Source: Tritonibacter horizontis (lineage in GTDB: Bacteria; Pseudomonadota; Alphaproteobacteria; Rhodobacterales; Rhodobacteraceae). From it: 64,000 bases of DNA. The position numbers and the translations under genes are program-made. Within the stretch, counting starts at the first letter, position 1. Each line of letters opens with the position of its first letter. A model generated the notes under the pieces. It was given only the letters and a program-made list of their open reading frames with translations, was not told the origin of the DNA and made no database searches. This document shows positions 21,428 to 37,921 of this stretch, one piece after another. Where the stretch lies: contig NZ_LPUY01000008.1 in assembly GCF_001518015.1 (NCBI RefSeq), forward strand, positions 248,001 through 312,000. The letters are read 5' to 3'.

Positions 21428-21456
21428 AGGGCGCCGTGTGTCACGGCGCCCTTTTT
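21428..21456 (+). terminator. Rho-independent terminator after katG
   Basis: An 11-bp perfect stem AGGGCGCCGTG/CACGGCGCCCT (21428-21438 with 21442-21452) with a 3-base loop and a run of Ts. It separates katG from the convergent thiolase gene. Confidence 0.92.
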
Positions 21457-22571
21457 CAGTTCGCGGCGCGCACGGCCTTGAACAGGGCCGCACTGCCCAA
21501 CCCACCTGCCGCGGCAATTGCAGCGAGGGCCGGACCGTCGTCGGGTTGCAAGCCATGGAAGAGCTTGACGGCAAGTATTGCGCCGGATGCGCCAACAGGA
21601 TGGCCCTGTGCCAATGCGCCACCCGCCGGGTTTACGCTGTCGGGGCGCAGCTGCGCGCCCTTGATGCAAGCGAGGGCCTGAACCGCGAAAGCTTCCATGA
21701 TCTCAGATCGGTGGAGCGCATACGGGTCGATCCCTTCGCGCGCCAGTACCTCCTTGATCGCGACGAGTGGCGCCAGGCCTGGCTGCAGTGGATCGCTGCC
21801 GCGTGTCGCCCCCTGCAGCAGGCGCAGCCCGGCCCGGTTCAGGTTTCGTGCTCGCCTGTCGCTGACAATGACAACACAGGCGGCGGCATCGGCGGCCACG
21901 GCCATATTCGCAGCGGTAATGCTGCCGGTGACGACCGGCGCGCGGGCGCAAATGCGCGGCGTGAGGTCGCGCAGAAAGGCATCGTCGGTGACACCTCCGA
22001 CCGGAACAATTTCCGCCTGTCGGTCCGCGCCATGCCGACGCGCCTTGGCATGGCTTTGCTGTGCCCACTGGTCCTGTTCCGCGCGTCCGATTGCCAAACG
22101 ATGTCCCAGTTGATCCGCCGCTTCGGCCATATCGGGGTCTTTGGAGGCCCAGGGTGTGAAGCGGGCCTGATCATAGGGTTCTGGCGTGCGTCCGTCCGCA
22201 AATGTGCGCGCCCGTAGCGGGCGACGGGAATAGCTTTCCACGCCGCCGGCAACAACGACATCATGCACACCTGCCGCCACCAATGCGTGGCCGAGCAGGA
22301 TCGCATCCAACCCGCCCGCGCATTGCCGGTCGATGCTGAGCCCGGCAACCCGGTCGGGCAGTCCGGCTGCGAGCGCCGCAAGGCGGGCGGGGTTGCCGCC
22401 ACCGCCAAGGGCGTTTGACAGGATCAGCTCGTCAACGTCCGAAGGGGCCAGATCTACATCCGCGAGACAGGCCTTCAGGACGGGAGTGACCAGATCATGT
22501 GGCTCTAAATGGGCAAATTGTCCGCCTTTTGGCATCACCGCGCTGCGCCGCGCTGCCACGATAAGGGGCAT
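21456..22571 (-). CDS. Thiolase-family acyltransferase lacking the C-terminal cysteine
   Basis: 371-residue thiolase-like protein. The nucleophile cysteine is in SIDRQCAGGLDAI, and the catalytic histidine is in GHPVGASGA. The second cysteine of standard thiolases (CIGGGMG) is replaced: the end reads IAAAGGLGSA, with alanine at the cysteine position. The start overlaps the stop of the acyl-CoA synthetase gene by one base (TGATG), so the two are translated together. The loss of that cysteine argues against ordinary reversible thiolysis; the reaction is unknown. A longer frame from 22586 lies inside the neighbour and is not used. Confidence 0.82.
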   Translation of the reverse strand: MPLIVAARRSAVMPKGGQFAHLEPHDLVTPVLKACLADVDLAPSDVDELILSNALGGGGNPARLAALAAGLPDRVAGLSIDRQCAGGLDAILLGHALVAAGVHDVVVAGGVESYSRRPLRARTFADGRTPEPYDQARFTPWASKDPDMAEAADQLGHRLAIGRAEQDQWAQQSHAKARRHGADRQAEIVPVGGVTDDAFLRDLTPRICARAPVVTGSITAANMAVAADAAACVVIVSDRRARNLNRAGLRLLQGATRGSDPLQPGLAPLVAIKEVLAREGIDPYALHRSEIMEAFAVQALACIKGAQLRPDSVNPAGGALAQGHPVGASGAILAVKLFHGLQPDDGPALAAIAAAGGLGSAALFKAVRAAN

Positions 22572-23719
22572 CAGCCTTCCTCCCAAAACTGCCTCAGCGC
22601 CTGCAGATCCGGTTTGCCGGCTGGCAGCATCGGGATTTTGTCGATCCTGTGGATGTGCTTTGGCACCGCATGACCGCCAATCTGGTCTCGGCAGCGCTGG
22701 CGCAGGGTGGCCGCGTCGGCCGTGCCTTCGATGACAGCGACAACCCGGTGCCCGCGCATGGGGTCCGGCAGCCCCAGGGCGACCGCGCCAACCACGCCCG
22801 GTGTCGCAAGCAGCACGGCTTCGATCTCTTCCGGAAAGACGTTCTTGTCCGCTACGGTCACCATCCGGTTGCGCCGCCCTCTGGAGAACAGGTTTCCCTT
22901 GGCATCAAGGCGCCCCATCTCGCCGATGCTGAGCCAGCCGCGATCCCAGCGGGTTTCGGCGCTGCTGCCTTGCGCGTACCCCTCGAACAAATAGGGGCTT
23001 TGCACCCAGATTTCTCCCACGCCCTGCGCATCGGGATCGGCAATGCGGATCTCGACGCCGGGATAGGACTGCCCGACAGAGTGCGCGGCGACATCATGCC
23101 CGGCAAGGGTGATGTAGCTGGTTTCAGAGGCTCCAAAGATTTCATAGAGCTGCGCATTGGGGCACAGGCTGCCAAGGGCGGATCGCAGGTCTTCGTTCAG
23201 CTTGCCACCGGAGGAAAAGATCAGCCTGAGCGATGGCAAGCGGGTTGCGCCCGCCGCCCGCACCAGCAGGCGCAGCTGCGCGGGCGTCGCATAGAGGACT
23301 GAGGCGGCAAACTCTGCCAGCCCCTGCTGTTGCGCCCGCGGCCCGGCGCCGCCGAGCATCGCCAGATCTGCCCCGAAATGGCAGGCTGCGACCGCGGCAA
23401 ACAGCGTCAACGAATGCGACAGCGTACCAAGACTGGCGAAGGTATCGGCACCCGACAGGCCAAACAGCTGTTGGTCGATCTCGAAACTCTTGGTCCAGCT
23501 TTCCGGTGCCCGGCGGATCGTCTTGGCAAACCCGGTGGAGCCTGAGCTTTGACAATAGAGTTTTTGCTGCGGCTCGGCCTTGGCGGAAATGGGGTTCTCT
23601 CCGGGCCGGGCCAGGATAGATTTTCCTGTCCGCAACGCCTCGGTCAGCTCTGCCAGCCCGGCGACGTCGGGCGTTCGGATACAGGTCTGCGCGGACATGC
23701 GGAATGTGGTCAAAGACAT
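22571..23719 (-). CDS. Short AMP-dependent acyl-CoA synthetase-like protein
   Basis: 382-residue member of the adenylate-forming family, against about 500-550 for full-length acyl-CoA synthetases. The ATP loop SSGSTGFAK lies near residue 57. Then come a FGASETSY motif, GWLSIGEMGRLD (aspartate of the ribose-binding motif) and the catalytic lysine in PMLPAGKPD. About 100-150 N-terminal residues of the usual fold are missing, although the frame and start look normal. Paired with the thiolase it may activate and condense or cleave one acyl substrate; which one cannot be told. Confidence 0.8.
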   Translation of the reverse strand: MSLTTFRMSAQTCIRTPDVAGLAELTEALRTGKSILARPGENPISAKAEPQQKLYCQSSGSTGFAKTIRRAPESWTKSFEIDQQLFGLSGADTFASLGTLSHSLTLFAAVAACHFGADLAMLGGAGPRAQQQGLAEFAASVLYATPAQLRLLVRAAGATRLPSLRLIFSSGGKLNEDLRSALGSLCPNAQLYEIFGASETSYITLAGHDVAAHSVGQSYPGVEIRIADPDAQGVGEIWVQSPYLFEGYAQGSSAETRWDRGWLSIGEMGRLDAKGNLFSRGRRNRMVTVADKNVFPEEIEAVLLATPGVVGAVALGLPDPMRGHRVVAVIEGTADAATLRQRCRDQIGGHAVPKHIHRIDKIPMLPAGKPDLQALRQFWEEG

Positions 23720-23782: not shown

Positions 23783-24640
23783 TCAGGTGAACTTGCGAAA
23801 CAAGCGCGTGCGGTCAAAGGCCTTTTCCAGCTCGTCCGTGCGCGCCTTTACCGTTTCCCAGTGGTCTTCCTGGATCTTGGCAATCATGCTCTCCACCAGC
23901 AGCAACAGGGCGACACCAGAGTCCCAGGCGGAAGGCACCGCGATCCGGGCCGCAAAGGTGTATTTGGCGAGTTTCTGAATCGGCGAGCGCCATTGGTCGG
24001 TGAACAAGACCACATCGACGCCGCGTTCATGCGCCATTTCAGCGAGCAGAAGCGTGGCATTTTCATAGCGCCGGACGTCAAAAAGGATCAAGGTATCGCC
24101 CGGCAGCAGATCCAGAACAGAATGCGCCCAGGAGGCGCGGGGCGGGATCATAAAAACGTCCCGCCGGATCATCTGCAGGTGGAGGTAGAAGGTTTGCGCC
24201 AGCGTGCCGCTCAGCCGCCCGCCGGCGATATGTACCCGGCGATCCGTGTCCGCCAGAAGATCACACAGCGCGTCGAATTCCGCCAAAGTCACGTTTTCCA
24301 GTGTCGCCCGGATATTGTCGTAGACCCCCACAGCATAGCGATTGAGCATATGCGACTCGGGCAGGGCCGGCGCATGCTCTGCCCGCTTCTCAACCGGATT
24401 GGAGATGATCTCGCGCAGTTCCTCGCGGAGGGCATGCTGAAACTCCGGATAGCCGGAGAACCCCAGCTTCTGGACCATGCGAGCGACCGTCGGGGTGGAC
24501 ACCTCAGCAAGATCGGCCAGTTCGGTGATGCTGCCCAGGCCGGGAATCGGATAGTTTTCAAGTATCGCGGCGGACAGTTGACGTTCTGCGCGGGTGAGGT
24601 CTAATTCGCGGGATTTCAGCTTCTCGGCAATCGTCGGCAT
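23783..24640 (-). CDS. RpiR/MurR-family transcriptional regulator
   Basis: 285-residue regulator. The N-terminal RpiR helix-turn-helix region reads ITELADLAEVSTPTVARMVQKLGF. The C-terminal SIS domain (residues about 125-260) binds phosphosugars in classical members, but many alphaproteobacterial relatives sense other ligands. GGAGG precedes the ATG. It is divergent from the amidohydrolase-TRAP-ligase operon over a 115-base gap and is the obvious candidate to control it. Confidence 0.88.
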   Translation of the reverse strand: MPTIAEKLKSRELDLTRAERQLSAAILENYPIPGLGSITELADLAEVSTPTVARMVQKLGFSGYPEFQHALREELREIISNPVEKRAEHAPALPESHMLNRYAVGVYDNIRATLENVTLAEFDALCDLLADTDRRVHIAGGRLSGTLAQTFYLHLQMIRRDVFMIPPRASWAHSVLDLLPGDTLILFDVRRYENATLLLAEMAHERGVDVVLFTDQWRSPIQKLAKYTFAARIAVPSAWDSGVALLLLVESMIAKIQEDHWETVKARTDELEKAFDRTRLFRKFT

Positions 24641-24755
24641 GGGCCGCCCCTCCTGAACAGATTTTTCGCATATTATTACAGGTCAACTTTTGATGAAAGG
24701 ATTTTTACAGAAAGTATATTGACAGAAGCAAGCAGGCTGAAGAGCATGCTACAGT

Positions 24756-25520
24756 ATGAGCACTGACAAATTTGCCCTTCCGTTTGGACCATCCTTTGCC
24801 AAGACCCCGTCCGTGGTTTCGGCCGAGGTGCTTGTGGTGTGTGAGCACGCAGCGAATTGGATTCCGCCGGAGCTGACGGGTCTTGGCCTGGATGAGGCCG
24901 CGCGGACCAGTCATATCGCTTGGGATCCGGGCGCGCTTGCCGTGTCGCGTCAGCTGGCTTCGGCGCTGGGGGCTCCGATGGTCGAGGGATGTATCTCGCG
25001 GTTGGTCTATGACCTGAACCGCCCGCCGGAGTCGCCGACGGCGGTGCCGGTCACATCAGAGATCTTCGACATTCCAGGCAATCGCGACCTTTGCGACGCG
25101 GCGCGGGCGCAGCGCGTGGAGGCGGTATACGAACCGTTCCGCGCCGCCCTGGCAGCGGAAATCGCCGCGCGACAGGGCGCGTTGCGTCTGTTGGTTACGG
25201 TGCATAGCTTTACGCCAGTGTTCAAAGGCGCCCAACGCGCGGTAGAGCTGGGCCTGCTGCATGGGCGCGATGACCGTTTCGCCAAGGCGATGCTGGCGCA
25301 AAAGCCGGCAGGGACCACATGGGACGTGCGCCTGAACGAACCCTATAGTGCCAGCGATGGGGTTGCGCATACGCTTGACCTGCATGGCTGCGACAATGGG
25401 TTGCTCAATGTCATGCTGGAAATCCGCAATGATCTGATTGCCACGCCGCAGCAGCAAGCGGCCTGGGCGGCAGAGCTTGCCCCCTGGATCAAGACCACCC
25501 TAGAGGAGGTATTTGCATGA
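24756..25520 (+). CDS. N-formylglutamate amidohydrolase-family protein
   Basis: 254-residue member of the N-formylglutamate deformylase/amidohydrolase family, recognisable from VVCEHAANWIPPEL, RLVYDLNRPPE, LVTVHSFTPVF and DLHGCDNGLLNVMLEIRNDL. Tested relatives are zinc enzymes that hydrolyse N-formylglutamate in histidine breakdown. No hut genes are here. The neighbours instead include a glutamine-synthetase-like ligase, so I infer it hydrolyses a glutamyl or acyl amide. No clear ribosome binding site precedes ATG 24756. The stop overlaps the next start as ATGA. Confidence 0.83.
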   Translation: MSTDKFALPFGPSFAKTPSVVSAEVLVVCEHAANWIPPELTGLGLDEAARTSHIAWDPGALAVSRQLASALGAPMVEGCISRLVYDLNRPPESPTAVPVTSEIFDIPGNRDLCDAARAQRVEAVYEPFRAALAAEIAARQGALRLLVTVHSFTPVFKGAQRAVELGLLHGRDDRFAKAMLAQKPAGTTWDVRLNEPYSASDGVAHTLDLHGCDNGLLNVMLEIRNDLIATPQQQAAWAAELAPWIKTTLEEVFA

Positions 25521-26104
25521 TCAACGCCATGCTGGGCTACGTGCGGGTTGTCGATGCGGTAAATTACCGGATCGGCCGGGTCATGATGTGGGGATTGTTC
25601 GGAATAATGGCGGTCCTGCTCTGGTCTTCCTTCACAAAGACCTTTCTGCTTCCGTCCCCCTGGACCCTGGAAACGGCACAATTCGCCATGGTCACCTACT
25701 ACATTCTCGGCGGCCCCTACTCGATCCAGCTTGGGTCCAATGTGCGAATGGATTTGTTCTATCACAACTGGACCAACCAGCGAAAAGCCTGGTTTGATGC
25801 CTTCACCGTGCTGTTCCTGATTATCTATCTGGCGATCCTGCTCTATGGCGGGATTGGGTCGACCGCCTATTCACTGGGATATTGGGGGACCAATCCAATC
25901 GGCTTCTTCGGCGGGTTGGTGAGCGGAACCGAGGAGATCGGTTTTGTCGAGCGGTCCTCCACCGCGTGGCGTCCCTATATCTGGCCGGTGAAATCCATCA
26001 TGGTGCTCGGGTTCTTTCTGATGCTGCTGCAGGCCTTCTCCGAACTTTTCAAAGACATTGCCCGCATCAAAGGGCACGACATCCCAAGTGAGCGTGACGC
26101 ATGA
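25517..26104 (+). CDS. TRAP transporter small membrane subunit (DctQ type)
   Basis: 195-residue four-helix membrane protein typical of TRAP Q subunits. The first helix is GRVMMWGLFGIMAVLLWSSF and the last is IMVLGFFLMLLQAFSELF. The C-terminal cytosolic tail ends DIPSERDA. Overlaps both neighbours by four bases (ATGA), so amidohydrolase, Q and M are translationally coupled. Confidence 0.9.
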   Translation: MINAMLGYVRVVDAVNYRIGRVMMWGLFGIMAVLLWSSFTKTFLLPSPWTLETAQFAMVTYYILGGPYSIQLGSNVRMDLFYHNWTNQRKAWFDAFTVLFLIIYLAILLYGGIGSTAYSLGYWGTNPIGFFGGLVSGTEEIGFVERSSTAWRPYIWPVKSIMVLGFFLMLLQAFSELFKDIARIKGHDIPSERDA

Positions 26105-27420
26105 GCCAGGAATATATCGCCATCTTCATGTTCGCCTCGATGATGCTGATGCTCTTCACCGGGCAGCGGGTCTTTGGTGCCATTGGTGCCGTGGGCGCGA
26201 TTGCGGCCATGTTGCTGTGGGGCGTGGGCGGGTATGACATCCCCTTTGCCGCCGCGATGAAACTGATGAAATGGTATCCGCTGCTGACGCTGCCCATGTT
26301 TATCTTCATGGGCTACGTGCTGAGCGAAAGCCGGCTGGCGGATGATCTCTACAAGATGTTTCACGTCTGGATGGGCCCGATCAATGGCGGACTGGCCATT
26401 GGCACCATCGGCTTGATGGTGCTGGTCTCGGCCATGAACGGTCTGTCTGTGGCGGGCATGGCCATCGGGGCGACAATTGCGCTGCCGGAACTGCTGCGCC
26501 GCGGCTATGACAAGACAATGGTGACGGGGGTCATTCAGGCGGGCTCTTCCCTGGGCATTCTGGTGCCGCCCTCGGTGGTGCTGGTGCTCTATGCGATGAT
26601 CGCGCGGCAACCGGTTGGCCAGCTTTGGCTGGCGGGCGTTCTGCCGGGGCTGATGATGGCGGCCCTGTTCATTGTCTACATCTGGCTGCGCTGCAAATTC
26701 CAACCCCATCTTGGCCCCGCCATGAAGGACACGCAGGACGTGCCGCGGGCGGAGAAGCTGCGCCTGCTCTGGGCCGGGGCGCTGCCCTTGTTGATCTTCG
26801 CCACCATGATGGTGCCCTTTGTGAACGGCTGGACCTCCCTGGTGGAAAGCTCTGCTATCGGGGCGCTGACCGCGCTTGCGGCCTCGCTGGCGAAACGCCG
26901 GATGACCTGGAAAACGCTGGAAGTCTGTACACGGCAAACGCTGGCGATTTCCTGCATGTTCATGTGGATCATCCTCGCGGCGCTTGGGTTTGGTGCGGTG
27001 TTTGACGGGCTGGGTGCGGTCAAGGCCATTGATACGTTGTTCACCGACCAGCTGGGGCTGGACCCTTGGGTGATCCTGATCCTGATGCAGCTGTCCTTTA
27101 TCGTGATGGGGACGTTCCTCGACGATACGGCCATGCTGGTGATCGTGGCGCCGCTTTATGTGCCGCTGGTTGGTGCATTGGGGTTTGATCTGGTCTGGTA
27201 TGGGGTGCTCTATACGATCACCACCCAGATCGCCTATATGACACCGCCCTTTGGCTATAACCTGTTCCTGATGCGCGCCATGGCCCCACCAGAAGTATCC
27301 CTGATGGACATCTACCGCTCCATCGTGCCCTTCGTCGCCATTATGGTGGGAGCGCTTGCCATCATCATGATCTTTCCGCAGATCGCCCTTTGGCTGCCGG
27401 AATATGTTTACAACAAATAA
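26101..27420 (+). CDS. TRAP transporter large membrane subunit (DctM type)
   Basis: 439-residue sodium-coupled permease subunit of ordinary length with about 12 helices. The M-subunit signatures are QAGSSLGILVPPSVVLVLYA in the first half and PPFGYNLFLMRA in the second. Sits between the Q gene and the periplasmic protein gene, so the order is Q-M-P rather than P-Q-M. Confidence 0.93.
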   Translation: MSQEYIAIFMFASMMLMLFTGQRVFGAIGAVGAIAAMLLWGVGGYDIPFAAAMKLMKWYPLLTLPMFIFMGYVLSESRLADDLYKMFHVWMGPINGGLAIGTIGLMVLVSAMNGLSVAGMAIGATIALPELLRRGYDKTMVTGVIQAGSSLGILVPPSVVLVLYAMIARQPVGQLWLAGVLPGLMMAALFIVYIWLRCKFQPHLGPAMKDTQDVPRAEKLRLLWAGALPLLIFATMMVPFVNGWTSLVESSAIGALTALAASLAKRRMTWKTLEVCTRQTLAISCMFMWIILAALGFGAVFDGLGAVKAIDTLFTDQLGLDPWVILILMQLSFIVMGTFLDDTAMLVIVAPLYVPLVGALGFDLVWYGVLYTITTQIAYMTPPFGYNLFLMRAMAPPEVSLMDIYRSIVPFVAIMVGALAIIMIFPQIALWLPEYVYNK

Positions 27421-27471
27421 GACCGAGAACTCCGACAACGGAGCGTTTAATCCAACATTTAGGAGACTAAC

Positions 27472-28509
27472 ATGACCACCAGACGTTCATTCCTGCGCAC
27501 GGCAGCTGTCGGGGGCGCCGCATCGCTCGCCGCACCTGCAATTGTCAAAGCCGACACCGCCATCAAGTGGCGTTTTCAGACCTATGCCGGCGCCGCCCTG
27601 GGCGAGCATGTGACCAAACCGGCGATTGACTACATCAACAACGCCGCCAATGGCGAGCTGGAAATCGAATTGTTCTACGCCGACCAGCTGGTCCCCACGG
27701 GCGAGCTGTTCCGGGCAATGCAGCGCGGCACCATTGACGGTGTGCATTCTGACGATGACTCCATGGCGTCGCCGACACCCTTGCAGCAATTTGGTGGGTA
27801 TTTCCCACTCGCGACCAAGCATTCGCTCGATGTGCCGGTGCTGTTTGACCAATACGGTCTGGCGGACATCTGGCGCGAGGAATACGCTAAGGTTGGTGTG
27901 CAGTGGCTGTCTGCCGCCGGTCAGGATCCCTGTAACTTCAACACCAAGAAAGAGGTCACATCGCTGGCCGATCTCGAAGGTCTGAAGCTCTATACCTTCC
28001 CGACAGCGGGTCGCTTCCTGTCCAAATTCGGCGTTGTGCCGGTCACCATCCCCTACGAGGATGCAGAGGTCGCGGTGCAGACCGGCGAGCTGGACGGCAT
28101 GGCCTGGTCCGGCATCACCGAAGACTATACCGTCGGTTGGGCAGATGTGACCGACTACTTCCTGACCAACAACATCTCCGGTGCCTGGATCGGCTCCTTC
28201 TTCGTGAACCAGGGTGTCTGGGCGGATCTGCCCGATCACCTGAAAGCCATCGTGATGGCGGGGATCGAAGCAGGCCACACCTATCGCAACCAGTGGTATT
28301 GGGGCGGCGAAGCACGTCTGCGCGCCACCGGCGACAAGCTCAAGCTGCGGTCGATCCCGCAGGAAGAGTGGGTGCAGGTCGAAGAGGCCGCCAAGGAGTT
28401 CTGGACCGAGATCGCGGGCGAGAGCGAAATCAACGCCAAGATCGTCCAGATCTTCCGTGACTATAACGATGTGATCGGTCAGGCTGGCCCGCCCTATACC
28501 TTTGGCTAA
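27472..28509 (+). CDS. TRAP transporter periplasmic binding protein (DctP type) with altered ligand arginine
   Basis: 345 residues with a twin-arginine-like signal (TRRSFLRTAAVGG ... APAIVKA). DctP-family architecture is clear: ELFRAMQRGTIDG, then SLADLEGLKLYTFPTAGRFL, then AEVAVQTGELDGMAWSG. Most carboxylate-binding relatives have an arginine in GLK(I/L)R that grips the ligand carboxylate. Here the segment is GLKLYTF, with tyrosine at that place. The second TRAP protein of this window keeps the arginine (GMKIRGG). This suggests an unusual, perhaps non-carboxylate, ligand. A hairpin follows the stop. Confidence 0.9.
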   Translation: MTTRRSFLRTAAVGGAASLAAPAIVKADTAIKWRFQTYAGAALGEHVTKPAIDYINNAANGELEIELFYADQLVPTGELFRAMQRGTIDGVHSDDDSMASPTPLQQFGGYFPLATKHSLDVPVLFDQYGLADIWREEYAKVGVQWLSAAGQDPCNFNTKKEVTSLADLEGLKLYTFPTAGRFLSKFGVVPVTIPYEDAEVAVQTGELDGMAWSGITEDYTVGWADVTDYFLTNNISGAWIGSFFVNQGVWADLPDHLKAIVMAGIEAGHTYRNQWYWGGEARLRATGDKLKLRSIPQEEWVQVEEAAKEFWTEIAGESEINAKIVQIFRDYNDVIGQAGPPYTFG

Positions 28510-28538
28510 GCCTTGCTTGTTCGAGCAAACTTAAAACG

Positions 28539-28562
28539 CGAGGGCCCCTGACCGGGCCCTCG
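28539..28562 (+). terminator. Hairpin after the TRAP binding-protein gene
   Basis: A 9-bp perfect stem CGAGGGCCC/GGGCCCTCG around CTGACC, with no clear T-run. It may partly terminate or stabilise the TRAP message ahead of the ligase gene. Confidence 0.6.
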
Positions 28563-28595
28563 TCTCACAGTTTCCACCTTTGCCGGAAGATCTCC

Positions 28596-29957
28596 ATGCC
28601 CGTATCCATGACCTTTGACGACCTGAAAACTGCAATCGGCAACGGCACGATTGATACCGTTCTGACCTGTATCGTCGATATGCAGGGACGGCTTATGGGC
28701 AAGCGGTTCCACGCGGAGGCCTTTCTCGACATCGCGGATGGCGAGACCCATTGCTGCAACTATCTGCTGGCCACCGACCTGGCGATGGCGACACCGGACG
28801 GCTATGCCTCGACCAGCTGGGAAAGCGGGTATGGCGACTACATCATGAAGCCGGACCTTTCGACGTTGCGGCCCGTTCCTTGGCTGGAAGGGACCGCCAT
28901 GGTGCTGTGTGACGTGATTGACCACCACAGCCACGCGCCGGTTGCGCATTCCCCGCGCGAGATGCTGAAAGCGCAGATCGCGCGCTGCGCGGCGCTGGGC
29001 CTGACGCCGGTGATGGCAACCGAACTGGAGTTTTTCCTGTTCGAAGGTACCCATGACGAGATCGCGCGCAATGGGTTCAAGCTGCAGCCGGTCTCTAACT
29101 ACAATGAGGATTACAGCATCTTCCAGACCTCCAAGGAGGAACCGGTGATGCGCCCGATCCGCAACCACCTGCGTGCCATGGGCATCCCGATCGAAGGGTC
29201 CAAGGGCGAGGCGGAAGCGGGCCAGGAAGAACTGAACGTCAAATATGACGAGGCGCTGGCGACGGCCGATCATCACACGCTGGCCAAGCACGGGATCAAG
29301 GAGATCGCGCATCAGCAGGGCTATGCGGCGAGCTTTTTGCCAAAATGGCACAAGGACCGCGTCGGCTCTGCCGCGCATGTGCATCAGTCGCTGTGGCAGG
29401 ACGGCAAGAACGCCTTTTTCGACGAGGGCGCGCCGCTTGGAAAGTCCAGGCTGATGGATCACTACATGGCGGGTCTGCTGAAATATGCCGGTGACTACAC
29501 CTATTTCATGGCGCCCTACATCAACAGCTACAAACGCTTTGCCAAGGGGACCTTTGCACCGACGCAGGTGGTCTGGTCGGTCGACAACCGCACGGCTGCT
29601 TTCCGCCTGTGTGGCGAGGGAACCAAGGGCGTGCGGGTTGAATGTCGGGTGCCGGGGGCGGATATGAACCCCTATCTGGCGCAAGCTGCGATGCTGGCTG
29701 CCGGCCTCAAAGGCATCGAGGAAAAACTGGAGCTGTCGGCGCCTTACAAAGGCGATGCCTATGCGGGCGAGGCGCGCGAACATATTCCGGGCACGCTGCA
29801 GGAGGCCCGCGCGGCGCTTTTGGGGTCTGACATGCTGCGAGAGGCCTTTGGCGAGACGGTCATCACCCACTACGCCCGTGCGGCCGAGTGGGAAATCGAA
29901 GAATTCAACCGCGTGGTGACCGATTACGAGATCGCGCGCGGAATTGAAAAAGCCTGA
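28596..29957 (+). CDS. Glutamine-synthetase-like gamma-glutamyl-amide ligase
   Basis: 453-residue glutamine-synthetase-fold enzyme. Active-site motifs are ATELEFFLF (metal-binding glutamates), GSAAHVHQSLW, INSYKRFAKGTFAPT and SVDNRTAAFRL. It lacks the adenylylation tyrosine loop and the length pattern of housekeeping GlnA. It resembles the PuuA/GlnA4 group, which ligates glutamate to amines such as putrescine or ethanolamine. GGAAG stands 6 bases before ATG 28596; ATG 28608 is an alternative. It comes before an aldehyde dehydrogenase and an alcohol dehydrogenase, which fits oxidation of a glutamylated amino alcohol. Confidence 0.85.
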   Translation: MPVSMTFDDLKTAIGNGTIDTVLTCIVDMQGRLMGKRFHAEAFLDIADGETHCCNYLLATDLAMATPDGYASTSWESGYGDYIMKPDLSTLRPVPWLEGTAMVLCDVIDHHSHAPVAHSPREMLKAQIARCAALGLTPVMATELEFFLFEGTHDEIARNGFKLQPVSNYNEDYSIFQTSKEEPVMRPIRNHLRAMGIPIEGSKGEAEAGQEELNVKYDEALATADHHTLAKHGIKEIAHQQGYAASFLPKWHKDRVGSAAHVHQSLWQDGKNAFFDEGAPLGKSRLMDHYMAGLLKYAGDYTYFMAPYINSYKRFAKGTFAPTQVVWSVDNRTAAFRLCGEGTKGVRVECRVPGADMNPYLAQAAMLAAGLKGIEEKLELSAPYKGDAYAGEAREHIPGTLQEARAALLGSDMLREAFGETVITHYARAAEWEIEEFNRVVTDYEIARGIEKA

Positions 29958-29972
29958 TTGCTGCAGGGGTTT

Positions 29973-30016
29973 GCGAGGGCCAGCCCTCGCGCTCCCGAGG
30001 TATTTGGGAAAAGATG
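29973..30016 (+). repeat. Possible Roseobacter intergenic repeat element
   Basis: A 7-bp hairpin GCGAGGG/CCCTCGC (29973-29979 with 29984-29990) is followed by CTCCCGAGGTATTTGGGAAA and AGATGAAG. From memory, a motif of this kind (hairpin, then C-G-rich tract, TATTTG, AAGATGAAG) recurs between genes of many Rhodobacteraceae. Only one copy lies in this window, so repetition cannot be shown here. Confidence 0.45.
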
Positions 30017-30060
30017 AAGGAAATCGGGGCCGCGAAACGCGCCCTCGGAGGAGTGGGCCT

Positions 30061-31443
30061 ATGGGCAAGACATTGAAGTGTATTTCGCCGATCGACGGAT
30101 CGGTTTTTGCAACGCGCGAGACATTGGGCCAAGAGGCCGCGCAGGCCGAAGTTGCGGCTGCGCGCGCGGCCCAGAAGGCCTGGGCGGCGCGCCCGTTGCA
30201 GGAGCGTGTCGATCTGGTGATGGCGGGTGTCGCCGCTGTGGGCGCGATGAACGATGAAATCGTGCCGGAACTGGCCCATATGATGGGGCGGCCAGTCCGG
30301 TTCGGCGGTGAATTTGGTGGCTTTAACGAGCGGGCCAGTCATATGGCTGCGATTGCCGCCGAGGCGCTGGCCGATATCGAGGTCGGAGAAGATGCGACCT
30401 TTAAACGCTACATCAAGCGCATTCCGCATGGGGTGGTTTTTGTCATCGCCCCGTGGAATTACCCCTATATGACCGCAATCAATACGGTTGCGCCGGCGCT
30501 GATTGCCGGGAATGCCGTGGTGCTGAAACATGCCACCCAGACGCTGCTGGTTGGTGAGCGCATGGCCGCGGCCTTCCACAGTGCGGGCGTGCCTGAGGAT
30601 GTTTTCAAGAACGTCTTCCTCGATCATGAAACCACATCGTCGCTGATTGCCGGAAGGACCTTTGATTTTGTGAACTTCACCGGATCCGTTGGCGGGGGGC
30701 AGGCGATGGAGCGGGCCGCTGCGGGCACGTTTACCGGTGTTGGCACCGAGCTGGGCGGTAAGGATCCGGGCTATGTCATGGACGACGCCGATGTCGATGC
30801 GGCCGTTGATACGCTGATTGATGGCGCGATGTTCAATTCCGGCCAATGTTGCTGCGGGATCGAACGGATCTATGTCCATGAAAGCCTTTACGACCGTTTC
30901 GTTGAAAAGGCGGTGGCCGTGGTCAACGGGTACAGGCTTGGCAATCCGCTGGACGAAGAGACCACGATTGGCCCGATGGCCAATGTGCGGTTTGCCCAGG
31001 AGGTGCGTGACCAGATCGCCGAAGCGGTAGAGCAGGGCGCCGTGGCCCACATTGATACCATGTCGGCAGATGATGGCGGCGCCTATCTGACGCCGCAGAT
31101 CCTGACCAATGTCAGCCATGAGATGCGGGTGATGCGCGACGAGAGCTTTGGCCCGGTCGTCGGCATCATGAAGGTTGCTTCGGACGAGGAAGCGATTGCG
31201 CTGATGAACGACAGCGAGTTTGGCCTGACGGCGTCGATCTGGACCAAGGATCTGGAGCGCGCGGAGGCGGTGGGCGACCAGATCGAGACCGGGACCGTGT
31301 TCATGAACCGGGCCGACTATCTGGATCCTGGACTGTGCTGGACCGGCTGCAAGAACACTGGTCGCGGTGGCGGCTTGTCGGTGATCGGCTATCAGAACCT
31401 GACCCGTCCAAAATCCTATCACCTGAAAAAGGTGACGGGCTGA
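30061..31443 (+). CDS. Aldehyde dehydrogenase
   Basis: 460-residue NAD(P)-dependent aldehyde dehydrogenase. Cofactor segment VIAPWNYPYM, catalytic glutamate in TELGGKDPGYV, catalytic cysteine in SGQCCCGIERI. ATG 30061 is used because GGAG precedes it and the protein begins with the usual ALDH N terminus; the open frame runs upstream into the preceding ligase. Follows the glutamyl ligase and precedes a Fe-alcohol dehydrogenase, so it probably oxidises the aldehyde made by that enzyme. Confidence 0.9.
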   Translation: MGKTLKCISPIDGSVFATRETLGQEAAQAEVAAARAAQKAWAARPLQERVDLVMAGVAAVGAMNDEIVPELAHMMGRPVRFGGEFGGFNERASHMAAIAAEALADIEVGEDATFKRYIKRIPHGVVFVIAPWNYPYMTAINTVAPALIAGNAVVLKHATQTLLVGERMAAAFHSAGVPEDVFKNVFLDHETTSSLIAGRTFDFVNFTGSVGGGQAMERAAAGTFTGVGTELGGKDPGYVMDDADVDAAVDTLIDGAMFNSGQCCCGIERIYVHESLYDRFVEKAVAVVNGYRLGNPLDEETTIGPMANVRFAQEVRDQIAEAVEQGAVAHIDTMSADDGGAYLTPQILTNVSHEMRVMRDESFGPVVGIMKVASDEEAIALMNDSEFGLTASIWTKDLERAEAVGDQIETGTVFMNRADYLDPGLCWTGCKNTGRGGGLSVIGYQNLTRPKSYHLKKVTG

Positions 31444-31521
31444 CACGCGTCTCCGGACCCCTACAGGTTCGGTCTCTCCCCCTATTTCTGGCCTGCGGGC
31501 CACTGACGAAAGGCAATATCC

Positions 31522-32667
31522 ATGTCTCTCACCGGCAATTGGTCGTATCCGACCGCAATCAAGTTCGGCGCTGGCCGGATCAAGGAACTCGCGGCAGCCT
31601 GTGCTCAGGCGGGCATCAAGAAACCGCTTCTTGTGACCGACAAAGGGCTGGCCAGCCTGCCTGTCACACAGTCGACGCTCGATATTCTCGAGGCGGCCGG
31701 GCTGGGGCGTGGGATTTTTTCCGAGGTCGACCCGAACCCAAACGAGCAGAACCTGGAGGCCGGCGTTGCGGCATACAAGGCGGGTGGGCATGACGGCGTC
31801 ATCGCTTTTGGTGGCGGTTCGGGTCTGGACCTTGGCAAAATGGTCGCCTTTATGGCGGGTCAGACCCGTCCGGTCTGGGATTTCGAAGACATTGGCGACT
31901 GGTGGACGCGGGCTGATGCCGATGCAATTGCGCCGATCATTGCGGTGCCGACGACAGCGGGCACCGGTTCTGAGGTCGGGCGCGCTTCGGTCATCACCGA
32001 CAGCGTGACCCATCAGAAGAAAATCATCTTCCACCCCAAAGTGCTGCCGACCGTGGTGATCTGCGATCCGGAGCTGACCGTGGGCATGCCAAAGTTCATC
32101 ACCGCCGGGACCGGCCTGGATGCCTTTGCGCATTGTGTCGAGGCGTTTTCGTCGCCGCATTACCACCCGATGTCGCAGGGCATGGCGCTGGAGGGCATGC
32201 GGCTGGTCAAGGACTATTTGCCCCGGGCCTATGCGGATGGCACCGATATCGAGGCACGGGCGCAAATGATGTCAGCCGCGGCCATGGGGGCGACGGCCTT
32301 TCAGAAAGGGCTTGGCGCGATCCACGCCATGAGCCACCCGATCGGGGCCCATTTCAACACGCACCACGGCACCACCAATGCGGTCTGTATGCCTGCGGTG
32401 TTGGCGTTCAATGCCCCGGCAATCGCGGATCGTTTCAATTCGGCGGCCGCTTACCTCGGGATCGAGGGTGGGTTTGACGGGTTCAAATCCTTTGTCCAGA
32501 CGTTCAACGACAGCTTTGGCATTCCACGGTCCTTGTCCGATCTCGGGGTGACAGAGGCGTCGATCCCGGACCTGGTCAAGGGCGCGATCATCGACCCGAG
32601 CTGCGGCGGTAACCCGATTGCGCTGACCGAAGAGAACCTGACAGAGCTGTTCAACGCCGCTTTGTGA
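31522..32667 (+). CDS. Iron-containing alcohol dehydrogenase
   Basis: 381-residue group III alcohol dehydrogenase. The NAD-binding GGGSGLDLGK motif lies near residue 97. Metal ligands are expected in GLDAFAHCVEAF and in HAMSHPIGAHFNTHHG, which carries the conserved histidines. Last gene of the operon, ending at a strong terminator. In this context a primary alcohol on an imported, possibly glutamylated, substrate is the likely target. Confidence 0.9.
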   Translation: MSLTGNWSYPTAIKFGAGRIKELAAACAQAGIKKPLLVTDKGLASLPVTQSTLDILEAAGLGRGIFSEVDPNPNEQNLEAGVAAYKAGGHDGVIAFGGGSGLDLGKMVAFMAGQTRPVWDFEDIGDWWTRADADAIAPIIAVPTTAGTGSEVGRASVITDSVTHQKKIIFHPKVLPTVVICDPELTVGMPKFITAGTGLDAFAHCVEAFSSPHYHPMSQGMALEGMRLVKDYLPRAYADGTDIEARAQMMSAAAMGATAFQKGLGAIHAMSHPIGAHFNTHHGTTNAVCMPAVLAFNAPAIADRFNSAAAYLGIEGGFDGFKSFVQTFNDSFGIPRSLSDLGVTEASIPDLVKGAIIDPSCGGNPIALTEENLTELFNAAL

Positions 32668-32747: not shown

Positions 32748-33755
32748 CTAGGTTGGAATGCGGGCCACACTGTCGCGACAGATCAGTTCGACCTCGATGA
32801 TCTCTGAAACGCCGGTCAATGTGCCGGCTTCGATCATGTCCAGCAGCAGACGAGCGGCCTGTTCGCCGATTTGCGTGCGCCGCTGACGGATCGTTGTCAG
32901 GGCAGGGGACAGATGACCGACTACCTCGATGTTGTCAAAACCGACGAGAGAGACATCCTCCGGCACCCGGATGCCCTGATGCTGTACCGCCCCCATGAAA
33001 CCAATCGCCATCTCATCAGAGGCACAGAACAAGGCCGTGGGCCTGTCTTTCAGCTGTAGCCATTTCTGGGCAGCCGCCGCACCGGAGTCCATGCTGAAAT
33101 CGCCGTCAAAGATCCAGTCGTCACGCTGTTCGTGTTGGTGCAGCGACAGGGTTTCAACGTAGCCGCTCAACCGGGTTTGCGACAGAACATTGCCCTTTGG
33201 GCCGGTAATGTGGCCGATGTGCCTGTGCCCCATTTCAAGCAGGTGAGTCACCGCCAGCGAGGCCCCACGGGCATTTTCGGTCCGCACCGACGGCAGGTCG
33301 TCATCCATCCACTCGCAGGCGAGAATCACCGGTGGGCGGCCTGGTGTCGTCAGCGGCTCGACCGGCAGGGTGCCGTCGAACAGGATCAGCCCGTCCGCCA
33401 TGCCGGACTGCAGGTAGCCTGACAAACGATCATCGAGATTTGGCCCAGCCTGCGTGTCAGCAACCAAAAGCCCATAGCCGACCGGGTGCAGAACAGAGTT
33501 TATCCCGGCCAGAATCTGCGAGAAAAACGGGTTGGCGAGATTGGGAACAAGGGCAATGACGCTCCCGGTTCGTTGCCGCCTGAGGTTCGAGGCAGTGGCG
33601 TTGATCCGATAGCCGGTCCGCTCTACGGCAGCCAGTACAGCCTCCCGAGTCGCTTCGGCGACCACCGAAGGCTTTGACAAGGTCCTGCTGACGGTTGCCG
33701 TTGAAACGCCAGCTTCTGCGGCAACATCCTGAATCGTGGCGATTTTCTTGTCCAT
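32748..33755 (-). CDS. LacI-family regulator of the ribose-type ABC operon
   Basis: 335-residue repressor. The helix-turn-helix reads ATIQDVAAEAGVSTATVSRTL and the hinge INATASNLRRQRTG. The sugar-binding-like domain runs from SVIALVPNLANPFFSQIL to the end. It is divergent from an ABC sugar importer, and two identical operator cores lie between them, so it very likely represses both directions until the imported sugar binds. Confidence 0.92.
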   Translation of the reverse strand: MDKKIATIQDVAAEAGVSTATVSRTLSKPSVVAEATREAVLAAVERTGYRINATASNLRRQRTGSVIALVPNLANPFFSQILAGINSVLHPVGYGLLVADTQAGPNLDDRLSGYLQSGMADGLILFDGTLPVEPLTTPGRPPVILACEWMDDDLPSVRTENARGASLAVTHLLEMGHRHIGHITGPKGNVLSQTRLSGYVETLSLHQHEQRDDWIFDGDFSMDSGAAAAQKWLQLKDRPTALFCASDEMAIGFMGAVQHQGIRVPEDVSLVGFDNIEVVGHLSPALTTIRQRRTQIGEQAARLLLDMIEAGTLTGVSEIIEVELICRDSVARIPT

Positions 33756-33800
33756 GGACCTTCCTTTGACGGCGCCCAGAATGCCTCATCGAAAAACTAT

Positions 33801-33848
33801 TGTAAACGATTACGGTTTTTGCAAAGGTGCTCCTGTAAACGATTACAG
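33801..33848. promoter_or_regulatory. Twin LacI operators, 33 bp apart
   Basis: TGTAAACGATTAC occurs identically at 33801-33813 and 33834-33846. The second copy sits in the full palindrome CTGTAAACGATTACAG (33833-33848). The 33-bp spacing is about three helical turns, so two repressor dimers would bind on the same DNA face. They lie 46 bases from the LacI start and about 50 from the ATPase start. Confidence 0.85.
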
Positions 33849-33895
33849 CCAACCTACAACCAGGGAGCGCGCTCGACAAGAGCGTGGGGAGGAGA

Positions 33896-35461
33896 ATGGC
33901 GGCAAATAAACGACAGACCCCGGCCATGGCCGGGTCTATACCTGTGGCGTCGGGTCGGGAGCCGCCGACGGTTCTTGAGGCCGTTGAAATTTCACGTCGG
34001 TTCGGGCCGGTCCAGGTGCTGCATGGCGTGCCTTTTTCCCTGCGTGCGGGTGAAGTGCACGCGCTGATCGGGGAAAACGGCGCCGGAAAATCCACATTGA
34101 TGAAGATTCTTGCGGGCTTTTTGTCGCCCTCTGGCGGTCGATTGGAACTGGAATCCGAACCTGTCGAATTCAACGGCCATCAAAGCGCCGAAGATGCAGG
34201 AATTCTGATGATCCATCAGGAATTCAACCTCGCCATGCAATTGTCCGCGGCCGAGAATATCTTTCTCGGGCGGGAACGTCGGCGCGGCATTTTCCTGGAT
34301 CATCGCGCCATGCTGGAGGAAGCGCGCAGCCTGCTTGCCCGTCTGAACTGCCACGTCGATCCACGTACGCGCATTCAGGACATGTCGGTCCCGAACAGGC
34401 AAATGGTGGAAATCGCGCGGGCATTGGGGCGGCGCGCCAAGGTTCTCATCATGGATGAACCGACGGCGGTGCTGACCAACCGGGAAACAGAAATCCTGCT
34501 GGAGCAGATTGACCGCCTGCGGTCAGAAGGAACAGCCGTTCTCTTCACCTCGCACAAGCTTGACGAGGTGCAGCATATCGCGGACCGGGTGACGGTCCTG
34601 CGCGATGGACACCATATCCTGACCCGCGCCGCAGAGGGTTTTGGTGAAAATGCCATGGCAGAGGCGATGGTCGGGCGGGAGTTGAGCGATCTCTTTCCGC
34701 AGAAGCCAACCCCCCAACCGGATGTGGTGTTGGAGGCACGGGATGTCAGCGTGCCGGGGCTGGTGGAAGGGGCCAGTTTTCGCCTGAAGCGCGGCGAGGT
34801 TCTCGGATTTTCCGGCCTGGTCGGGGCGGGGCGGACCGAATTGATGGAAGCCATCGCCGGCTTGCGTGCCGCGACAGGCACGCTCGAGGTCAATGGCAAA
34901 TCGGTGCCGTTCGGTTCTGTTCAGGCGGCGCGCAAGGCGGGCTTGGCCTATCTGACCGAAGACAGGAAGGAAAAGGGGCTTCTGCTGGGGAAGGGGCTCA
35001 GGGAAAATCTGACCTTGCTGGCCTTGGAGCGGTTTGGTCGCCTGAAAATAGATCGTGTCGCCGAGGAGCGCGCGTTGGATCAGGCGATCGAGGAGTTTGA
35101 TATCCGCGCCAAGGACCGGACCGTCGCGGTCGGCAGCCTCTCCGGGGGCAATCAGCAGAAATTGCTGTTGGCCAAGACGATGCTGGCAGACCCGCAGATT
35201 GTCATCATCGACGAACCGACCCGCGGCATTGATATCGGCACCAAGCAACAAATCTACGATTTCATCGCCGAGCTGGCGCGCAGTGGCAAGAGCGTCATCG
35301 TCATCTCGTCCGAACTGCCGGAGGTTATCGGACTGGCGGACAGGATTGTCGTGATGGGACGTGGACATATAGCCGGCGAACTGACCGGTTCTCAAATTAG
35401 TGAAGACGCAATTCTGAGATTGGCGATGGGCGTCGCAGAAGATCAAAAGGAAACCGCATGA
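33896..35461 (+). CDS. Ribose-type ABC transporter ATP-binding protein (two ATPase domains)
   Basis: 521-residue tandem ATPase like RbsA/MglA. The first half has Walker A GENGAGKST, signature MSVPNRQMVEIARAL and Walker B VLIMDEPTAVL. The second half has a degenerate P-loop (GLVGAGRTE), then LSGGNQQKLLLAK and IVIIDEPTRGID. This asymmetry is normal in the family. ATG 33896 follows GGGGAGGAG closely; GTG 33884 and ATG 33926 are possible alternatives. The stop overlaps the permease start as ATGA. Confidence 0.94.
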   Translation: MAANKRQTPAMAGSIPVASGREPPTVLEAVEISRRFGPVQVLHGVPFSLRAGEVHALIGENGAGKSTLMKILAGFLSPSGGRLELESEPVEFNGHQSAEDAGILMIHQEFNLAMQLSAAENIFLGRERRRGIFLDHRAMLEEARSLLARLNCHVDPRTRIQDMSVPNRQMVEIARALGRRAKVLIMDEPTAVLTNRETEILLEQIDRLRSEGTAVLFTSHKLDEVQHIADRVTVLRDGHHILTRAAEGFGENAMAEAMVGRELSDLFPQKPTPQPDVVLEARDVSVPGLVEGASFRLKRGEVLGFSGLVGAGRTELMEAIAGLRAATGTLEVNGKSVPFGSVQAARKAGLAYLTEDRKEKGLLLGKGLRENLTLLALERFGRLKIDRVAEERALDQAIEEFDIRAKDRTVAVGSLSGGNQQKLLLAKTMLADPQIVIIDEPTRGIDIGTKQQIYDFIAELARSGKSVIVISSELPEVIGLADRIVVMGRGHIAGELTGSQISEDAILRLAMGVAEDQKETA

Positions 35462-36459
35462 CTGAGACGACAGCCACCCCGAACCCGGTGCGTGAGCGCA
35501 AAGTGAACCTGCATGTCCTTGGCCCGGTCCTGGCTTTGGTCGCCTTGATTCTGCTGGGCGCGTTCCTGAACAGCAACTTTCTGAGCTATGGAAACGTGAC
35601 AAACGTTCTGGCCCGCTCCGCCTTTATCGGGATCATTGCGGTGGGCATGACCTTTGTCATCACCGCTGGCGGCATCGATCTTTCGGTCGGGTCAATGGCC
35701 GCCTTTGTCGCCGGTGTGATGATCCTGGCGATGAATGCGTTGATACCGGTGCTTGGGATCGGCGTTCCGCTGGTGCTTGCTGGAATGGCGGTGGCCCTGG
35801 TGACAGGGTTGGCGGCCGGCCTGTTAAACGGGTTTTTGATATCGAAGGTCGGGATCGAAGCCTTTATTGTGACGCTGGGGTCGATGGGGATCTATCGCAG
35901 CCTGACCACATGGCTGGCCGATGGTGGCACCCTGTCGCTGGATTACGCGGCCCGCAGTTTCTACCGGCCCGTCTATTATGATGGCCTTCTTGGCATCAGC
36001 TGGCCCATCCTGGTCTTTGCACTGGTTGCCATTCTCGGAGAACTGACAATGCGCCATACGCCGTTCGGGCGGTATTGCGCCGCGCTTGGCGCGAACGAAC
36101 AGGTGGCGCGGTATTCCGCGGTCAAGGTCGACCGGATTCGCATGGGCACCTATGTGCTCCTGGGGATGCTGGTCGGGCTGGCAACCATCATGTATGTGCC
36201 GCGCCTGGGATCGGCTTCGGGGTCTACCGGGGTCCTGTGGGAGCTTGAGGCGATTGCAGCCGTGATTATCGGCGGCACCGTGCTCAAAGGGGGATCGGGC
36301 CGCGTCTGGGGCACCGTGACCGGTGTCCTGATCCTCAGCTTGATAGACAATATTCTGAATCTCGCCTCGATCGTCAGCCCGTATCTGAACGGTGCGATCC
36401 AAGGTGTGATCGTGATCCTCGCTGTTGTTCTGCAGCGGGGACGCAAGTCGGCCGATTAA
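35458..36459 (+). CDS. Ribose-type ABC transporter permease
   Basis: 333-residue membrane permease of the RbsC family with 8-10 helices. Family segments visible are GMTFVITAGGIDLSVGSM, GLLNGFLISKVGIEAFIVTLG and IAAVIIGGTVLKGGSGRVWGT. Coupled to the ATPase gene by a 4-base overlap. Confidence 0.94.
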   Translation: MTETTATPNPVRERKVNLHVLGPVLALVALILLGAFLNSNFLSYGNVTNVLARSAFIGIIAVGMTFVITAGGIDLSVGSMAAFVAGVMILAMNALIPVLGIGVPLVLAGMAVALVTGLAAGLLNGFLISKVGIEAFIVTLGSMGIYRSLTTWLADGGTLSLDYAARSFYRPVYYDGLLGISWPILVFALVAILGELTMRHTPFGRYCAALGANEQVARYSAVKVDRIRMGTYVLLGMLVGLATIMYVPRLGSASGSTGVLWELEAIAAVIIGGTVLKGGSGRVWGTVTGVLILSLIDNILNLASIVSPYLNGAIQGVIVILAVVLQRGRKSAD

Positions 36460-36485
36460 ACGGCTATTTTTGGGAGGAAAATGAC

Positions 36486-37497: not shown

Positions 37498-37921
37498 GTT
37501 TTGTCTGCCCCGTGCTGAAGCGGGATCTTGGCCGAGGCCTGGCGGACACGTCCTGTGGTTGAGTATCAATCAGCGAGGTGCGCCAGCCCAAAGCGATGAA
37601 ATTTCAAGCATTCGCAGATATTGGTAGTACCTCCTGGTTGAGCAGCTGCGTTTCGGCCCTGTCGGAATTGCGGCAGGAACCCGCAAAATCGGCGCATTTT
37701 CGCCCGCTGTGGCAAGTTTTCGCCGCAGTCTCGCCACAATCTGCACCGCTAAAATTTTAGCTACAGCGTCATTCTCCTTAGTTTCAGACATTTAGAATGT
37801 AGTTGCAATTTTCCGCTTATAGTCCGGCGCGGCGGGAGATTTCGTTTTGCTGCCACGATAACTACGAGATTGCGCGGTAGAACCGCAAATGCGACCTCAG
37901 CCGAGCAAGGAGAACCTGAAC
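37498..37921. other. Intergenic region upstream of the RTX gene
   Basis: I see no credible gene in these 424 bases; the short open frames lack a ribosome binding site and family motifs. It holds a 14-bp perfect palindrome GCTAAAATTTTAGC at 37748-37761 in a locally AT-rich stretch, possibly a regulator site for the RTX gene, and the RTX ribosome binding site AAGGAG at 37908-37913. Confidence 0.6.

What the first reader, a model, noticed from the sequence alone, without database searches (positions are those of the whole stretch)
24756..32667. Candidate gamma-glutamylation route for an imported amino alcohol or amine
One RpiR-flanked operon encodes an N-formylglutamate-amidohydrolase-like enzyme, a TRAP importer, a glutamine-synthetase-like ligase, an aldehyde dehydrogenase and a Fe-alcohol dehydrogenase. 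Read together they give a full cycle: import, glutamylate the amine, oxidise alcohol to aldehyde to acid, then hydrolyse the glutamyl amide to release an amino acid and glutamate. Known precedents are the Puu putrescine pathway and Streptomyces GlnA4 (gamma-glutamylethanolamide synthetase). What is unusual is a formylglutamate-hydrolase-type enzyme in the release step and TRAP import.
Basis: partly seen in the sequence, partly recalled or inferred. Interest (0 to 1): 0.7.

Follow-up and report, generated by a model that had tools for sequence, protein, structure and literature searches.

The report
Known ethanolamine gamma-glutamylation operon, roseobacter type
This is an ordinary copy of a published bacterial operon that imports ethanolamine, tags it with glutamate, oxidises it and releases glycine, a pathway already described in marine bacteria.

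Summary
An eight-gene unit, RpiR(-) / FGase-EtoV-EtoW-EtoX-GS-ALDH-FeADH(+), lies at 23783-32667; the stated coordinates match the FGase start and the Fe-ADH stop. The inferred pathway is also right, but it is in print. Westermann et al. 2023 (PMC10132767) describe the same genes in the same order in Phaeobacter sp. MED193: RpiR, gamma-glutamylglycine amidohydrolase, EtoV, EtoW, EtoX, ethanolamine gamma-glutamylase and two dehydrogenases. Their EtoX bound ethanolamine, Kd 7.9 uM. The window's EtoX matches the ethanolamine-binding Csal_0678 (PDB 4UAB) at 491 bits; the next chain scores 73. Its ligase matches Csal_0679 (5DM3) at 689 bits. Both "unusual" points, TRAP import and an FGase-family release enzyme, were already published. 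The operon is common: in 40 of 100 family genomes EtoX, ligase and operon-type FGase lie together. The genome has no EutB match. The most likely substrate is ethanolamine, the products glycine and glutamate. In the passages I read I saw no assay of the FGase on gamma-glutamylglycine. Interest is low.

The parts
23783..24640 (-). RpiR-family regulator (HTH_6 + SIS), divergent; counterpart of MED193_10021
   Evidence: Pfam; listed first in the Fig. 5 legend of PMC10132767; present at this place in 72 of 80 loci
24641..24755 (.). Divergent spacer with one sigma-70-like match and a TTGACAGA near the FGase start; possible operator/promoter region
   Evidence: promoter-like matches in the scanned region are not above shuffles (2 against 2.9), so weak
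24756..25520 (+). FGase-family amidohydrolase, probable gamma-glutamylglycine amidohydrolase (GGAH)
   Evidence: PF05013 144 bits; HutG model only 21.4 bits against cut-off 278.75; 232 bits to Atu2144, PDB 2ODF
25517..26104 (+). EtoV, TRAP small permease (DctQ)
   Evidence: Pfam
26101..27420 (+). EtoW, TRAP large permease (DctM)
   Evidence: Pfam
27472..28509 (+). EtoX, TRAP ethanolamine-binding protein
   Evidence: 491 bits to 4UAB/4XF5; 4UAB is Csal_0678 with ethanolamine
28539..28562 (.). Strong G+C hairpin between EtoX and the ligase gene
28596..29957 (+). Glutamine-synthetase-like ligase, probable ethanolamine gamma-glutamylase
   Evidence: Gln-synt_C 339 bits; 689 bits to 5DM3 = Csal_0679; under the GlnA, type III and PuuA cut-offs
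30061..31443 (+). Aldehyde dehydrogenase, probable gamma-glutamylacetaldehyde-amide dehydrogenase (start taken at the inner ATG; the listed ORF starts at TTG 29944)
   Evidence: Aldedh 390 bits (read from 30064)
31522..32667 (+). Fe-alcohol dehydrogenase, probable gamma-glutamylethanolamide dehydrogenase
   Evidence: Fe-ADH 167 bits

Best explanation
This is the ethanolamine gamma-glutamylation operon. EtoX captures ethanolamine in the periplasm and EtoVW imports it. The GS-like ligase joins it to the gamma-carboxyl of glutamate at the cost of ATP. The Fe-ADH oxidises gamma-glutamylethanolamide to the aldehyde and the ALDH oxidises that to gamma-glutamylglycine. The FGase-family enzyme then hydrolyses the amide to glycine and glutamate, so glutamate is recycled and no free aminoacetaldehyde is made. 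The divergent RpiR gene is the probable regulator. Shown here: gene content, order, families, and close kinship to the ethanolamine-binding protein and to Csal_0679. Shown by others in relatives: ethanolamine binding by EtoX and induction of operon proteins on phosphorylethanolamine. Inferred for this genome: every enzymatic step, the order of the two oxidations and the role of RpiR.
For: Same eight genes in the same order as MED193_10021-10056; five of those proteins rise on phosphorylethanolamine and MED193 EtoX binds ethanolamine with Kd 7.9 uM. EtoX: 491 bits to 4UAB against 73 for the next chain, and 4UAB holds ethanolamine. The stretch GITEDYTVGW, which holds the acidic residues nearest to the published platform Glu220 (my mapping, offset of 3 assumed), is identical in the window, in 4UAB and in 80 of 80 loci. 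Ligase: 689 bits to 5DM3, which is Csal_0679, 56-59% identical in the structure match. Aligned with a GlnA of the same genome, the ligase keeps the shared Glu, Gln, His, Arg positions of the GS core but lacks its FDGSSIAGW loop. Operon-type FGase occurs in 47 of 100 family genomes; 46 of those have the ligase, 44 within 6 kb on the same strand; Fisher p = 3.6e-15 for co-occurrence, not corrected for relatedness. No EutB match in the own genome.
Against: Nothing was assayed for this organism. Of the 59 genomes with the ligase, 13 lack an operon-type FGase at >=180 bits, although 12 of those 13 hold a more distant FGase at E <= 1e-20, so the release enzyme is less constant than the ligase. FGase and RpiR are the least conserved genes of the unit (median 50% and 48% identity, against 82% for EtoX). 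Of the 80 loci, two lack ALDH at this place and three lack the enzyme genes after EtoX. Four of 57 genomes have EtoX without the ligase at my threshold. In G093 the FGase is near EtoX but the ligase lies elsewhere, and in G069 they are on different contigs. The original Chromohalobacter paper could not be read, and two papers describe it differently: 'demonstrated to function' and 'predicted in an in silico approach'.
Confidence: 0.93

Rival explanations
1. The operon serves another small amino alcohol or amine (for example a propanolamine) by the same chemistry, with ethanolamine secondary.
For: The annotation of the relatives rests on EtoX binding and on induction; I saw no substrate range for this ligase in what I read. 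Related ligases sit beside other transporters: an amino acid permease in Sinorhizobium meliloti, an EamA-family transporter in Ruegeria conchae.
Against: EtoX is far closer to the ethanolamine-binding 4UAB than to any other solved chain, and the presumed platform stretch does not vary in 80 loci.
Confidence: 0.05
2. A Puu-like route for putrescine or another polyamine.
For: GS-like ligase, ALDH and amide hydrolase as in Puu.
Against: Ligase 209.5 bits against the PuuA-model cut-off of 650. Among the Pfam matches of the eight proteins there is no gamma-Glu-GABA hydrolase or amine oxidase family; an alcohol dehydrogenase has no place in Puu (recalled).
Confidence: 0.01
3. The FGase is a true N-formylglutamate deformylase of histidine breakdown, unrelated to the other genes.
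For: PF05013 membership.
Against: 21.4 bits against the HutG cut-off of 278.75. The genome has a separate protein over that cut-off at 356.7 bits (L091). The operon-type FGase lies within 6 kb of the ligase in 44 of 47 genomes.
Confidence: 0.02

Closest known systems
Ethanolamine operon MED193_10021-10056 of Phaeobacter sp. MED193 (EtoVWX, GGAH, ETAGA, GAADDH, GETADH; PMC10132767, sections 9-11 and passages read)
   Same: All eight genes, order and regulator family
   Different: No difference found in gene content; the MED193 sequences themselves were not compared here
Csal_0678/Csal_0679 of Chromohalobacter salexigens (PDB 4UAB, 5DM3; Vetting et al. 2015, not held, known through citing papers)
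   Same: EtoX at 491 bits, ligase at 689 bits
   Different: Gammaproteobacterium (recalled); its gene neighbourhood was not examined here
Streptomyces coelicolor GlnA4 route (PMC6529630, passages read)
   Same: Glutamylation of ethanolamine, two oxidations, proposed FGase-family release (SCO1615)
   Different: No TRAP importer is named in the passages read; sequences not compared here
Puu putrescine pathway
   Same: Gamma-glutamylation, oxidation and hydrolysis logic (recalled)
   Different: Ligase under the PuuA cut-off; different hydrolase family; no alcohol step (recalled)
Eut ammonia-lyase pathway
   Same: Ethanolamine as substrate
   Different: No EutB match in the own genome

Membership tests
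Ethanolamine gamma-glutamylation (Eto) operon | Gene set and order RpiR / GGAH-EtoVWX-ligase-ALDH-FeADH | tested here: met
Ethanolamine gamma-glutamylation (Eto) operon | SBP kin to Csal_0678/EtoX (published cut-off e-60 against the authors' own profile) | tested here: met
   E 1.4e-146 to 4UAB by phmmer; a different search from theirs
Ethanolamine gamma-glutamylation (Eto) operon | Ligase kin to Csal_0679 | tested here: met
   E 2e-206; structure match
Ethanolamine gamma-glutamylation (Eto) operon | Ethanolamine binding, ligase and dehydrogenase activities, release of glycine | not testable with these tools
   needs assays
HutG N-formylglutamate deformylase | NCBIfam TIGR02017 cut-off | tested here: not met
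   21.4 against 278.75 bits
FGase superfamily (PF05013) | Pfam gathering score and shared His/Arg-Asp-Asn-Arg/His/Glu framework | tested here: met
   144.4 against 28.9 bits; H31, R82, D86, N88, R89, H150, E222 align with both other FGases of the genome
Glutamine synthetase GlnA / type III | NCBIfam cut-offs | tested here: not met
   240.5 against 429.15 and 242.2 against 469.6 bits
PuuA gamma-glutamylputrescine synthetase | NCBIfam NF045547 cut-off | tested here: not met
   209.5 against 650 bits
Eut pathway | EutB (PF06751) in the genome | tested here: not met
   0 matches in the own genome (139 contigs, 99.79% complete); E. coli control rings

The most novel reading that the evidence does not exclude
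The same machinery in this lineage prefers another small amino alcohol, so that the release step yields an amino acid other than glycine; the SIS domain of the RpiR regulator might then sense a gamma-glutamyl intermediate instead of a sugar phosphate.
Probability: 0.05. Interest if true: 0.35.

Novelty: already known. Interest (0 to 1): 0.1.

Why it matters
It also supplies a count: EtoX, ligase and the FGase-type release gene lie together in 40 of 100 genomes of the family, and the FGase can sit beside the ligase without the importer. For the host it is a likely way to use ethanolamine, for example from phospholipids, without the Eut system. Nothing here changes what is known.

Tried and rejected
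A fold of the ligase without an alignment failed (mean pLDDT 36.4) and was not used; with 30 sequences it reached 78.8. Residues 57-79, which include the amine-site loop region, and 309-321 stayed under pLDDT 50, so no claim on the amine pocket rests on the model.

A search for a shared regulator site in 72 RpiR-FGase spacers (71 loci and the window) gave no clear palindrome: the commonest exact dyad is in 7 of 72. TTGACAGA, on either strand, is in 25 of 72 and may simply be a -35 box. Considered and rejected: Puu, Eut, HutG and ordinary glutamine synthetase (membership table). In loci that lack FGase I looked for a substitute hydrolase by eye, on the first 70 residues of neighbouring ORFs only, and recognised none; no domain search was made on them.

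Paper searches: one search gave nothing; some searches gave the papers used. PMC5299690 (passages) only lists Csal0679 among putative glutamine synthetases. Vetting et al. 2015 is not held; what I say of it comes from papers that cite it. That I saw no assay of the FGase on gamma-glutamylglycine rests and on the passages read, not on a full reading of any paper.

Full report
What is there. RpiR lies divergently at 23783-24640, just outside the stated coordinates, and the seven forward genes run from 24756 to 32667. The ALDH start is best placed at the ATG at 30061; the listed ORF begins at a TTG at 29944 that overlaps the ligase gene. My family scans read it from 30064.

What it is. The TRAP binding protein is the key to the substrate. 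It matches PDB 4UAB/4XF5 at 491 bits, and the next solved chain at 73 bits. A passage in PMC12410723 states that 4UAB is Csal_0678 of Chromohalobacter salexigens solved with ethanolamine and names Glu220 as the platform residue. A passage in PMC4646407 says that the protein lacks the arginine equivalent to Arg-147, which goes with carboxylate ligands in TRAP proteins. In the window the position aligned with an arginine of another TRAP protein (4YZZ) is Tyr174, also Tyr in 80 of 80 loci and Phe in 4UAB. GITEDYTVGW, which I take to hold Glu220 with an offset of three, is invariant in 80 of 80 loci and identical in 4UAB; I did not check that offset against a deposited numbering. The ligase matches 5DM3 at 689 bits, and the structure listing names that entry as Csal_0679, the next locus number.

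The published counterpart. Westermann et al. 2023 (PMC10132767; sections 9, 10 and 11 and passages read) give for Phaeobacter sp. MED193 RpiR, GGAH, EtoV, EtoW, EtoX, ETAGA, GAADDH, GETADH with rising locus tags, which is the order here. Five of these proteins rose on phosphorylethanolamine, and EtoX bound ethanolamine with Kd 7.9 +/- 1.9 uM. They report etoX in about 5-10% of bacteria in ocean metagenomes.

How common it is. Of 80 loci selected by EtoX similarity, 60 have all eight genes in order. Eleven are cut by a contig end. Nine differ: L011 lacks FGase; L036, L061 and L062 lack the enzyme genes after EtoX; L042 and L053 lack ALDH; L066, L070 and L081 lack RpiR and FGase. L061 (which also shows no RpiR or FGase) and L070 have only about 1.1 and 1.5 kb before EtoV. 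In 100 family genomes drawn evenly (own genome included), EtoX (E <= 1e-60) is in 57, the ligase (E <= 1e-120) in 59 and FGase at >=180 bits in 47. I set the FGase cut at a gap between 182.8 and 155.9 bits. EtoX and ligase are within 2 kb in 43 of 53 genomes that have both; FGase and EtoX within 3 kb in 42 of 45; FGase and ligase within 6 kb in 44 of 46; all three together in 40. In G021, G077, G091 and G095 the FGase gene directly neighbours a ligase gene with no room for TRAP genes between them, so it can travel with the ligase without the importer. In the other direction, G093 has FGase near EtoX and the ligase elsewhere, and G069 has them on different contigs. Contig breaks lower some of these counts.

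Importer swaps. In Sinorhizobium meliloti pSymB, genes annotated as RpiR, FGase, ligase, ALDH and Fe-ADH surround an amino acid permease. In a Ruegeria conchae plasmid the four enzyme genes are followed by an EamA transporter, with DeoR regulators nearby. Paracoccus denitrificans PD1222 has the full TRAP form. In these examples the enzyme set is the constant part.

The two enzymes in question. The FGase protein is in PF05013 but falls far below the HutG cut-off (21.4 against 278.75 bits). The genome carries two other PF05013 proteins, one over the HutG cut-off (356.7 bits) and one under it (121.6 bits). The window protein shares H31, R82, D86, N88, R89, H150 and E222 with both, so a hydrolase of that mechanism is likely; that such residues bind zinc is recalled, not tested. 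The ligase is under the cut-offs of GlnA, type III GS and PuuA. Against a GlnA of the same genome (L004, 651.8 bits against a cut-off of 429.15) it shares E143, E145, E205, Q210, E212, H261, NSYKR 310-314, N331, R332, R337, R347, E349 and R351 but has a shortened region in place of FDGSSIAGW. That loop holds the ammonium-binding aspartate of GS (D50; its replacement in GlnA4 is discussed in PMC6529630; the placement of D50 in this loop is recalled), in keeping with a larger amine. Functions of the other positions are recalled.

Weak points. Release by FGase is inferred. Thirteen of 59 ligase-bearing genomes lack the operon-type FGase; 12 of these have a distant FGase instead. FGase and RpiR are also the least conserved genes. 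The own genome gave no EutB match, so no ammonia-lyase route was found; other ethanolamine routes were not searched.

Verdict. Observation confirmed, interpretation supported, already known. The finding is correct biology but not new.

Noticed in passing
window 28510-28595, and the same gap in 76 related loci: A strong G+C hairpin lies between etoX and the ligase gene. Folds recur at this place with different sequences; 49 of 77 gaps fold better than mononucleotide shuffles at z < -2, median z -2.4. It may stabilise or attenuate the message after the binding-protein gene.
   Followed up: partly
rows, 100 family genomes: A second FGase group, 31-43% identical to the window protein and under 160 bits, is present in 85 of 100 genomes by my count of the rows. 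Its function and its place relative to the operon were not examined.
   Followed up: no
L087 (Sinorhizobium meliloti pSymB), L086 (Ruegeria conchae plasmid): The same enzyme set occurs with a different transporter: amino acid permease or EamA family.
   Followed up: partly
L089 (Paraburkholderia phymatum pBPHY02): A ligase homologue (54.5%) sits beside a PLP enzyme, a desaturase, a homoserine O-succinyltransferase and a gamma-glutamyl-GABA hydrolase family protein; it recalls a rhizobitoxine-type cluster (name recalled), perhaps gamma-glutamyl protection in a biosynthesis.
   Followed up: no
plasmid collection: Klebsiella plasmids account for 51 of 687 records with a ligase match and 45 of 142 with an FGase match; the arrangement was not examined.
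   Followed up: no
window 32748-37442: LacI-family regulator (-) followed by forward genes for an ABC importer: ATPase (33884-35461), probable permease (35458-36459, not scanned) and periplasmic binding protein (36486-37442); it looks like a separate sugar locus.
   Followed up: no
window 37889-40786: 965-aa protein with RTX calcium-binding repeats and laminin-G-like domains.
   Followed up: no
window 21456-23719 (-): Thiolase and a short AMP-binding ligase in tandem beside the RpiR gene; not part of the published operon as listed.
   Followed up: no
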